The position numbers and the translations under genes were made by a program. Positions 16,759 through 19,158 of a stretch of 64,000 bases of DNA are shown piece by piece. The stretch covers positions 1 to 64,000 of the forward strand of contig PLDK01000049.1 of the NCBI GenBank assembly GCA_003135135.1, given 5' to 3'. The stretch comes from Deltaproteobacteria bacterium (lineage in GTDB: Bacteria > Desulfobacterota > Binatia > Binatales > Binataceae). A model generated the notes under the pieces. It was not told the DNA's origin and made no database searches. It was given only the letters and a program-made list of their open reading frames with translations. Each line of letters begins with the position of its first letter. Within the stretch, counting starts at the first letter, position 1.

Positions 16759-16921
16759 AGAGACCTCCGCGCGATCGCCCGGTAGTCGAGACTCCGCGCC
16801 GAGCACGATGATCGCAGGATCGCGGCCCGCGTCAAATGCAGCGCGCCGGCTGCGGACCAGCGGCATCGGCGCGATCCGGCTCGATTCACGAATCGGCTCG
16901 AGCGGGGTTATAGATATCGTA

Positions 16922-17434
16922 ATGGGCAGGGCACACGGACTAGGGATTCCGCCGCCGTTCGAAGCGGCGGTAAAAAGCATGGAACGCGAGATCATGCGCT
17001 TCCTGATGCGCTCGACCGGCGACCGCGAGGATGCGATGGACCTGTTCCAGGAGACGTGGCTGCGCGCCTATCGCGCCTACCCCACGCTGCAATCGGAAGA
17101 CGGACTGCGGCCGTGGATTTTTCGAATCGCATCGAACCTGTGCCGCAATCGCGCGCGGGACAGGATGCGCCGCGGGCGCGTGATCGCCAACCAGACCGCG
17201 GACGGCGCAGCGCCGGCCGATGGCGCGTCGAATCAGCTCGGCGGCGGACCCGAAGGCGCGCTTCATTTGAAGAGGGCCATCTCGCGGCTGCCCGGCAAGC
17301 AGGGCCAGGCATTGATGATGCGCAAGTTCGCGGGGCTCGAATATACGGAGATCGGCACGGCGCTGGATTGCTCGGCCGAGAGCGCGCGGGCAAGCGTCTA
17401 TCAGGCGCTGAAGAAACTCAGGCTCGAAGAGTAG
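16922..17434 (+). CDS. ECF-type RNA polymerase sigma factor
   Basis: Region 2 DREDAMDLFQETWLRAYRAYPT, LRPWIFRIASNLCRNRARD; region 4 LPGKQGQALMMRKFAGLEYTEIGTALDCSAESARASVYQALKKLR. Confidence 0.9.
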   Translation: MGRAHGLGIPPPFEAAVKSMEREIMRFLMRSTGDREDAMDLFQETWLRAYRAYPTLQSEDGLRPWIFRIASNLCRNRARDRMRRGRVIANQTADGAAPADGASNQLGGGPEGALHLKRAISRLPGKQGQALMMRKFAGLEYTEIGTALDCSAESARASVYQALKKLRLEE

Positions 17435-17455
17435 TCAATTAGACGAGTAATCAAG

Positions 17456-18259
17456 ATGAAGACCAATCCAACGGCGACGCAAGTGAAGCGCAGTGCGCCG
17501 ACCGACGACCGGGTGATCGACGCAATGATCCGGCAGACGCGGCCGCGCATCGAGCGCGCGATGAAGATTCTGCGGCGGCCGCAAGCGCGGGTCGGAGTGA
17601 TTTCGTCGCCACTTGGGCGTCTGCTGATCGCGCAGAGCGACCGCGGCCTCGCGGCGATTCACTTTCTTTTCATAAGTGGGGGCGAGCGAACGCTCGAGAT
17701 GCTGCGCAAGAAGTTCGATCTGATCGAGAATGAGCCGAGTGCCCGCCGGATCGGCGCGGAAATCGATCGCGTGTTCGAGGGCGACTTCAATGCGACGGCG
17801 CATCCGGTGGATTTGAGCCTGGTCGAGAGCGACTTCCAGCGCCGCGCGTACATCTCGCTTCGAAAAGTCCCGCCCGGCGCGGTGATCACCTATCACGGGC
17901 TGGCCGCAACGGTTGGACAGCCCGACAGCCAGCGCGCGATCGGCAACACGATGGCGTCGAATCCGATCCCGATCTTCGTGCCGTGTCATCGCGTGATTCG
18001 CTCCGACGGAACGATCGGCAATTACGGCGGCGGCGTGGACAACAAGATCAAGCTGCTGCGCGCGGAGGGATTCGAAGTCGGGCGCGATCTGCGACTGCCG
18101 GCGCTCGCCGTGATGGGGCATCGACGCACCGGAATCTTCTGCCGGCCCGACTGCTCGGCGGCGCGGCGCGCGGATCCGGCCAGGATGCTGATCTTTGCGG
18201 ATGCCAAGTGCGCGGGACACGCCGGGCTGAGAGCATGCAAGCTGTGCAAGCCTGCGTGA
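17456..18259 (+). CDS. O6-methylguanine-DNA methyltransferase with C-terminal Ada-type Cys4 zinc domain
   Basis: FVPCHRVI active site; C-terminal HRRTGIFCRPDC-x27-CKLC like the Ada N-terminal phosphotriester-repair domain. Confidence 0.92.
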   Translation: MKTNPTATQVKRSAPTDDRVIDAMIRQTRPRIERAMKILRRPQARVGVISSPLGRLLIAQSDRGLAAIHFLFISGGERTLEMLRKKFDLIENEPSARRIGAEIDRVFEGDFNATAHPVDLSLVESDFQRRAYISLRKVPPGAVITYHGLAATVGQPDSQRAIGNTMASNPIPIFVPCHRVIRSDGTIGNYGGGVDNKIKLLRAEGFEVGRDLRLPALAVMGHRRTGIFCRPDCSAARRADPARMLIFADAKCAGHAGLRACKLCKPA

Positions 18260-18282
18260 ATCGGGCCGGCTGACAAAGAAAA

Positions 18283-18312
18283 AGAGCGGCGCCGAACGCG
18301 GCACCGCCCTTT
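18283..18312. terminator. Bidirectional intrinsic terminator between convergent genes
   Basis: A-tract, gcggcgccg-aacg-cggcaccgc stem (one mismatch), cctttt tract. Confidence 0.65.
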
Positions 18313-18333
18313 TAAGCCAATCTCGCTGTCCGA

Positions 18334-18681
18334 TTACTCGGTTTCCGACTGCGATTTGAGCTGTTGAATCTGCTGACGTTGATTCTCGATTTCTTGCTGT
18401 TGCTGCTGCACCTGCTGCTGGGTCTGTGCGTTGGCATTTTCCTGATTCTGCATCGAATTGCCGACTACGTAGCCGGTACCACCGCCCAGAACACCGCCGA
18501 TCAGGGCCCCCGCGAGAGGATGGCCTACGGCCATCCCGATCAGTGCCCCGCCACCTGCGCCCACCGCCGTGCCGCCGAGGGTGCCTTCCTCACGAGTCGA
18601 AAGTGGCTGCCCCGAGCATCCTGCAAGAACGAGCGTTCCCGCCAGCGCCAGAGTCATGATTAGTGCAATGCTTTTGCGCAT
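18334..18681 (-). CDS. Glycine-zipper lipoprotein with Gln-rich C-terminus
   Basis: MRKSIALIMTLALAGTLVLAGCSGQPLSTREEG lipobox; Gly/Ala zipper; QQQ tail. Confidence 0.82.
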   Translation of the reverse strand: MRKSIALIMTLALAGTLVLAGCSGQPLSTREEGTLGGTAVGAGGGALIGMAVGHPLAGALIGGVLGGGTGYVVGNSMQNQENANAQTQQQVQQQQQEIENQRQQIQQLKSQSETE

Positions 18682-18723
18682 ACTGAGAACCTCCATCGAT
18701 CAATAATTGATACGTCAGCCGAG

Positions 18724-19158
18724 CTATTCGGTTTCCTGTTGTTGCTTCAATTGCTGAATCTGCTGTTGCTGACCTTCGATCTGCTTTTGCTGCGATTGAA
18801 TCTGCGTCTGAGTTTGCTTGGTGGCGTTTTCCTGATTCTGCATCTCGTTGCCGACCGCGTATCCGCCTAGAGCGCCGATGCCGCCGCCGATTGCCGCGCC
18901 TGCCAGCGGTGCGCCGACCGCGGCGCCAATGATTGCACCGGTTGCGGCTCCGACTCCCGTGCCGATGAACGTGCCCTTCTCACGTGTCGAAAGTGGCTGT
19001 CCCGAGCATCCCACAACCGCCACGATCGCAATCGCCACGAGCAGACCTTTAATCAATGACGCCACGTTTGTCCGCACGAGCTTCCTCCTTCCAAGGGAGC
19101 AGTTTTCATGCCTGCCAACGGCTGGGACATTCCTCCAGCCAACGGCAGGCGAGTTCAT
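18724..19158 (-). CDS. Glycine-zipper lipoprotein, paralogue of the adjacent gene
   Basis: VVGCSGQPLSTREKGT lipobox and same zipper and Gln-rich tail; true start probably at an internal codon nearer LIKGLLVAIAIV. Confidence 0.78.
   Translation of the reverse strand: MNSPAVGWRNVPAVGRHENCSLGRRKLVRTNVASLIKGLLVAIAIVAVVGCSGQPLSTREKGTFIGTGVGAATGAIIGAAVGAPLAGAAIGGGIGALGGYAVGNEMQNQENATKQTQTQIQSQQKQIEGQQQQIQQLKQQQETE

What the first reader, a model, noticed from the sequence alone, without database searches (positions are those of the whole stretch)
16922..18259. ECF sigma factor paired with a permuted Ada (MGMT followed by Ada Cys4 domain, no AraC HTH)
Classical Ada is [Cys4 phosphotriester-repair domain]-[AraC HTH]-[MGMT]. 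Here the order is MGMT (FVPCHRVI) followed by a C-terminal Cys4 module (CRPDC-x27-CKLC), with no DNA-binding HTH. An ECF sigma gene ends 21 nt upstream on the same strand. One hypothesis is that methylation of the Cys4 module signals through the sigma factor instead of an AraC HTH, giving a differently wired adaptive response to alkylation. No anti-sigma gene is visible nearby, so the link is inferred from adjacency only.
Basis: partly seen in the sequence, partly recalled or inferred. Interest (0 to 1): 0.75.

Follow-up and report, generated by a model that had tools for sequence, protein, structure and literature searches.

The report
Sigma factor paired with alkylation-repair sensor
In a soil bacterium of the group Binatota, a gene switch (an ECF sigma factor) shares a short operon with a DNA-repair protein that soaks up methyl damage; relatives keep the pair together and in some the repair protein carries a built-in sigma-blocking domain, which suggests a differently wired alarm system for DNA alkylation.

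Summary
16922-17434(+) encodes an ECF sigma factor. 21 nt later, 17456-18259(+) encodes an O6-methylguanine-DNA methyltransferase (MGMT) followed by an Ada Cys4 domain, with PCHR and all four zinc cysteines intact and no AraC HTH.

The pairing is not chance. In the Binatota set, 60 of 64 MGMT-Cys4 loci have an ECF sigma ORF directly upstream, against 2 of 34 other MGMT loci. Two unrelated sigma clades hold the position. Same-family genomes without the sigma-linked copy also lack the sigma orthologue. A conserved promoter-like motif (TTCAC-N14/15-GGGGTT; TTTCAC-N14-GGTGTY in other families) precedes the sigma gene and, in three relatives, a second MGMT gene.

In 15 relatives the MGMT-Cys4 protein has an N-terminal HxxxCxxC zinc domain matching genuine ECF anti-sigma domains (hhalign 97%). 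In the window's own protein that domain is not detectable; a short helix stands there.

Best reading: an autoregulated sigma/sensor pair in which self-methylation of MGMT-Cys4 changes its hold on sigma. Pairing, motif and fusion are shown; sensing and polarity are inferred. ECF sigma beside MGMT is already recorded as group ECF122, mechanism unknown.

The parts
16885..16912 (+). Conserved promoter-like motif TTCAC-N14-GGGGTTATA, 9 nt before the sigma ATG; inferred autoregulated promoter of the operon
   Evidence: Motif found upstream of the sigma gene in 30 of 34 loci of the family (controls near 0; examples); the only exact match in the 3.7-Mb genome
16922..17434 (+). ECF-type sigma factor, 170 aa (regions 2 and 4 only)
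   Evidence: Pfam Sigma70_r2 2e-16, Sigma70_r4_2 9e-10; one of three ECF sigmas among five Sigma70_r2 matches in the genome
17456..18259 (+). MGMT-Cys4 protein, 267 aa (MGMT followed by Ada Cys4 domain)
   Evidence: Pfam and PDB matches; homologues across several families
17507..17572 (+). N-terminal helix, residues 18-39 (DDRVIDAMIRQTRPRIERAMKI), at the place where relatives carry the anti-sigma-type zinc domain; no detectable homology to that domain
   Evidence: Helix in the AlphaFold2 model, residues 196-217 of the fused chain; hhalign to anti-sigma profiles under 2%
17588..18070 (+). MGMT domain, residues 45-205, acceptor Cys177 in PCHR (codon 17984-17986)
   Evidence: DNA_binding_1 8e-29; 1sfe match at residues 45-205; PCHR invariant
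18083..18253 (+). Ada Cys4 (methylphosphotriester-acceptor type) domain, Cys229, 233, 261, 264; predicted acceptor Cys229 (codon 18140-18142)
   Evidence: Ada_Zn_binding 9.4e-12; alignment to E. coli N-Ada FCRPSC...CKRC; four Cys invariant
18280..18313 (.). Terminator-like hairpin (15-bp stem) between MGMT-Cys4 and the convergent lipoprotein gene; listed by the scan on the - strand, near-palindromic and T-rich on the + strand too
   Evidence: Terminator scan

Best explanation
The two genes form an autoregulated operon: an ECF sigma factor and its partner, a suicide DNA-repair protein that doubles as the sensor of alkylation. The MGMT-Cys4 protein takes methyl groups from O6-methylguanine (Cys177) and, by analogy to N-Ada, from methylphosphotriesters (Cys229). 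Unmethylated, it restrains the sigma through its N-terminal region; methylation loosens that hold, sigma then transcribes its own operon (and in some relatives a second MGMT gene), and fresh unmethylated protein closes the loop. Shown: domain content, conserved pairing, two separate sigma clades in the position, co-loss, conserved upstream motif, and an N-terminal anti-sigma-type zinc domain fused to the same protein in one branch. Inferred: binding to sigma, methylation as the signal, and the direction (release rather than activation). In the window's own branch the zinc domain is absent, so the contact would have to be made by the short N-terminal helix or the body of the protein.
For: Adjacency: 60/64 MGMT-Cys4 loci against 2/34 other MGMT loci, Fisher p about 4e-19, relatives not independent. 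Sigma orthologue (E below 1e-38) in G007, G010, G014, G020, G023, G033 but only generic ECFs in G008, G009, G011, G021, G022, G032; in G022 the gene next to tatD has lost both the sigma and the Cys4, while its congener G007 has both. Two distinct sigma clades, A (98/99) and B (100/100), pair with MGMT-Cys4. HxxxCxxC domain in 15 of 15 proteins of f5, f12 and G133; hhalign to 10 ECF-linked anti-sigma domains 97%, E 1e-10, negative controls under 1%. The two other ECF sigmas of this genome are each followed by a zf-HC2 protein at the same position. Upstream motif in 48 of 54 clade-A loci of f1, f2, f5, f12 and G133, and about 70 nt before a second MGMT gene in G039, G355 and G356.
Against: The window protein and its whole family lack the zinc domain. 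AlphaFold2 of sigma joined to MGMT-Cys4 gave pTM 0.56, so no confident complex. Four MGMT-Cys4 loci have no sigma upstream (three beside leuS). The zinc-domain hits are below Pfam's gathering score sequence by sequence (E 0.0005-0.1). No expression or biochemical data.
Confidence: 0.55

Rival explanations
1. The MGMT-Cys4 protein is only a repair effector. The sigma is controlled by other means (its own transcription, proteolysis, an unknown partner) and drives the repair gene as its target; the Cys4 domain just repairs phosphotriesters.
For: No anti-sigma domain is detectable in the window's protein. The upstream motif has a single exact match in the genome, the operon itself. The review lists ECF122 as having no cognate anti-sigma and an unknown mechanism.
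Against: Fusion to an anti-sigma-type zinc domain in 15 relatives; sigma tracks the Cys4-bearing MGMT rather than MGMT in general; co-loss.
Confidence: 0.27
2. The MGMT-Cys4 protein is a co-activator: once methylated it contacts the sigma on promoter DNA and turns it on, much as methylated E. coli Ada contacts region 4 of sigma-70 (that precedent is from my own knowledge, not looked up here).
For: The Cys4 domain is retained with the sigma; the N-terminal zinc domain is absent in the window's family; intact acceptor cysteines.
Against: There is no AraC HTH for sequence-specific DNA binding, and the branch with the zinc domain points to sequestration.
Confidence: 0.15
3. The adjacency is an accident of gene order without functional meaning.
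For: The block is partly syntenic within the family (nnrU and glycine-zipper genes nearby).
Against: The pairing persists in several families with other flanks, with two different sigma clades, in another class (G133) and in Actinomycetota.
Confidence: 0.03

Closest known systems
ECF122 sigma group (Casas-Pastor et al. 2021, seen through the review PMC8999054)
   Same: ECF sigma without a cognate anti-sigma gene, next to a 6-O-methylguanine DNA methyltransferase; mechanism listed as unknown
   Different: The group's model member is from Cellulomonas (Actinomycetota). The review does not mention the C-terminal Cys4 domain or an N-terminal anti-sigma-type domain. The group's own profile was not available to test the window's sigma
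Ada of E. coli (adaptive response)
   Same: MGMT domain plus Cys4 domain in one protein, both with intact acceptor motifs
   Different: Order reversed, AraC HTH missing, ECF sigma gene as partner; below the NCBIfam Ada cut-off (127 against 345 bits)
Zinc-binding (ZAS / zf-HC2) anti-sigma factors such as ChrR and RsrA
   Same: Same gene position after an ECF sigma; relatives in f5, f12 and G133 carry the HxxxCxxC domain at the N-terminus
   Different: The sensor part is a DNA-repair protein; the window's protein lacks the motif
SigS of Staphylococcus aureus
   Same: ECF sigma whose expression is induced by methyl methanesulfonate (PMC4265319)
   Different: I found no link to MGMT or Ada domains in the passages read
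Ada of Caulobacter CC0709
   Same: Listed in that paper as an Ada orthologue with an internal deletion in the regulatory domain (PMC1839093)
   Different: No reversal of domain order and no sigma partner are mentioned in the passages read

Membership tests
ECF122 | ECF-type sigma (regions 2 and 4) | tested here: met
   Pfam
ECF122 | Neighbouring O6-methylguanine-DNA methyltransferase gene | tested here: met
ECF122 | No cognate anti-sigma gene | tested here: met
   No separate anti-sigma gene next to the pair; fused domain only in relatives
ECF122 | Match to the group's own profile or phylogenetic clade | not testable with these tools
   The classification paper and its profiles are not held; sigmas beside MGMT in Actinomycetota fall near clade A with weak support, 83/89
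Ada (NCBIfam equivalog) | Cys4 zinc domain with acceptor cysteine | tested here: met
Ada (NCBIfam equivalog) | MGMT domain with PCHR | tested here: met
Ada (NCBIfam equivalog) | AraC-type HTH and order Cys4-HTH-MGMT | tested here: not met
   127 bits against a cut-off of 345
ZAS anti-sigma factor (window's protein) | HxxxCxxC zinc motif in an N-terminal anti-sigma domain | tested here: not met
   Motif absent; hhalign under 2%
ZAS anti-sigma factor (relatives in f5, f12, G133) | HxxxCxxC zinc motif in an N-terminal anti-sigma domain | tested here: met
   15 of 15 proteins; hhalign 97%, E 1e-10
ZAS anti-sigma factor (relatives) | Binds and inhibits its sigma | not testable with these tools
   Needs biochemistry

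The most novel reading that the evidence does not exclude
A family of alkylation-responsive anti-sigma factors: a suicide DNA-repair enzyme (MGMT plus Ada Cys4) fused to, or acting as, the anti-sigma of an ECF sigma, so that the adaptive response is wired through sigma release instead of an AraC-type activator; found in several Binatota families and, in related form, in Actinomycetota.
Probability: 0.5. Interest if true: 0.8.

Novelty: new variant of a known kind. Interest (0 to 1): 0.62.

Why it matters
The adaptive response to alkylation is usually explained by one protein design, Ada with its AraC HTH. A conserved ECF sigma/MGMT-Cys4 pair would be a second wiring of the same response and would give ECF122, listed with unknown mechanism, a concrete testable one. 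The fusion of an anti-sigma-type zinc domain to MGMT-Cys4 in relatives would make a DNA-repair enzyme the signal receptor of a sigma factor. Binatota are predicted methylotrophs that use chloromethanes (PMC8262859), so a need for such a system is plausible, though this is inference.

Tried and rejected
Chance adjacency: rejected by conservation. Another Ada in the same genome: the two other Ada_Zn_binding hits lie in proteins with a WPGC-type motif, one nuclease-like and one phospholipase-D-like by eye, not in an Ada. PDB search with the relatives' N-terminal domain: only meaningless matches. Link between the window family's N-terminus and the zinc domain: no detectable homology. Wider regulon in the window's genome: only the operon itself matches the motif. 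Phylum-wide search with the full alignment: swamped by ordinary MGMTs, replaced by a class-wide search. Scan of viral contigs failed on the server side. The Casas-Pastor 2021 paper is not held. Literature searches for MGMT as an anti-sigma found nothing relevant among the papers held.

Full report
WHAT IS THERE. The window comes from a Binatota genome; its nearest named relatives are Candidatus Binatus and Binataceae assemblies. ORF 16922-17434(+) is an ECF-type sigma of 170 aa, and ORF 17456-18259(+) is a 267-aa protein with an MGMT domain followed by an Ada Cys4 domain. Solved-structure matches are the C-terminal domain of E. coli Ada and, for the tail alone, N-Ada. Acceptor cysteine 177 and the four Cys4 cysteines are invariant in 17 aligned homologues. 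By alignment to N-Ada, Cys229 corresponds to the first cysteine of its FCRPSC motif. A terminator-like hairpin follows at 18280-18313. This genome has no AraC-type Ada: the only other Ada_Zn_binding matches are two WPGC-type domains in other proteins, and no second MGMT was found with this protein as query.

THE PAIRING. In the family, every one of the first 29 loci with upstream DNA has the sigma gene directly upstream, at 47-91% identity. A class-wide search of 151 genomes and the fetched neighbourhoods gave 64 MGMT-Cys4 loci that could be judged. Of these, 60 have an ECF sigma ORF directly upstream on the same strand. Among 34 MGMT loci without a C-terminal Cys4, 2 do (Fisher p about 4e-19; relatives are not independent, and a few of the 34 have the Cys4 at the N-terminus). 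The four exceptions are L041, L044, L045 (by eye beside leuS) and L109 (match lacks the N-terminal half).

TWO SIGMA CLADES. A tree of 62 sigma sequences puts the sigmas of f1, f2, f5, f12, G133 and two f9 genomes in one clade (98/99, with one long-branched Arthrobacter sequence), and those of f3, f6, f7 and another f9 genome in a separate clade (100/100) among ordinary ECFs. The association therefore arose, or was re-formed with a new sigma, at least twice. Pairs are also found in Actinomycetota: Rubrobacter radiotolerans (genes overlap), Nonomuraea and Streptomyces NBC_00503, each with MGMT then Cys4.

CO-LOSS. The sigma orthologue is found in the checked genomes with a sigma-linked copy (G007, G010, G014, G020, G023, G033) and is absent from G008, G009, G011, G021, G022 and G032, which have only generic ECFs (G011 is only 53% complete). 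G009 and G022 have an MGMT that has lost the Cys4; in G022 it lies next to tatD and metG, the order seen in the window, while its congener G007 has sigma and Cys4. G008 is the counter-example: Cys4 without sigma.

ANTI-SIGMA-TYPE DOMAIN. In all 13 f5 proteins with their N-terminus, in f12 (L111) and in G133 from another class (L112), the MGMT-Cys4 protein has an N-terminal domain with a leading Cys and HxxxCxxC. Single-sequence Pfam hits to zf-HC2 are below the gathering score (E 0.0005-0.1). Profile against profile, 15 such domains match 10 zf-HC2 domains that follow ECF sigma genes in Binatota genomes at 97% probability (E 1e-10), while MGMT, Cys4 and sigma segments score under 1%. The window's genome has three ECF sigmas; two are followed by a zf-HC2 protein and the third by MGMT-Cys4. 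The window's family has instead a short helical N-terminus with no detectable homology to that domain, so anti-sigma action of the window's own protein is inferred from position and kinship, not from its sequence.

PROMOTER AND REGULON. Upstream of the sigma gene lies TTCAC-N14/15-GGGGTT in the window's family and TTTCAC-N14-GGTGTY in other clade-A families. A combined pattern is present in 48 of 54 clade-A loci of f1, f2, f5, f12 and G133, against about zero in reversed and shuffled controls; it is absent from all six clade-B loci. In the window it lies at 16885-16912, 9 nt before the ATG, which predicts a nearly leaderless mRNA. It is the only exact match in the genome. In G039, G355 and G356 the motif also lies about 70 nt before a separate MGMT gene; it was not seen before the MGMT of the other f5 genomes checked. 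In f2 a second MGMT follows in the same direction. This fits an alkylation-repair regulon. That the sigma itself reads this motif is inferred.

STRUCTURE. AlphaFold2 on sigma and MGMT-Cys4 read as one chain gave mean pLDDT 78.7 and pTM 0.56: both parts fold, with a confident N-terminal helix, but their relative placement is not reliable.

KNOWN OR NEW. A review of non-canonical ECF sigmas lists ECF122 as lacking a cognate anti-sigma and lying beside 6-O-methylguanine DNA methyltransferases, mechanism unknown, with a Cellulomonas member as model (PMC8999054). The adjacency is therefore not new as a kind. I found no mention, in the papers held, of the Cys4 domain or of an anti-sigma-type domain in these MGMTs; the original classification paper is not held, so it may describe more. 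The window's sigma could not be scored against the ECF122 profile.

VERDICT. Best explanation at 0.55, plain effector 0.27, co-activator 0.15, accident 0.03.

Noticed in passing
L032 (G000:C11) and L033 (G000:C7): Two other Ada_Zn_binding matches in the same genome are WPGC-type domains at the ends of a nuclease-like and a phospholipase-D-like protein (by eye); they do not look like alkylation sensors.
   Followed up: partly
L035, L036, L093, L095-L098, L101, L102: f5 loci carry, within about 2 kb downstream, a small MGMT-like protein with PWQR in place of PCHR where read (alkyltransferase-like protein).
   Followed up: partly
L103-L105, L107: f2 loci have a second MGMT gene without a Cys4 domain downstream of MGMT-Cys4 on the same strand.
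   Followed up: partly
L119, L120 (G365, G364, family f9): ECF sigma followed by an MGMT without Cys4 whose N-terminus resembles a zinc-less version of the anti-sigma-type domain.
   Followed up: partly
L050 (G006, same genus): A 577-aa ORF that by eye reads as Cys4, AraC HTH and AlkA, followed by an MGMT, in a genome that also has the sigma/MGMT-Cys4 pair; the two wirings can coexist.
   Followed up: partly
window 18334-19158, - strand: Two tandem glycine-zipper lipoprotein genes converge on the operon; relatives have one to several copies.
   Followed up: no
L041, L044, L045: MGMT-Cys4 genes beside leuS without a sigma, in two of these genomes as second copies; what controls them is unexplained.
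   Followed up: no
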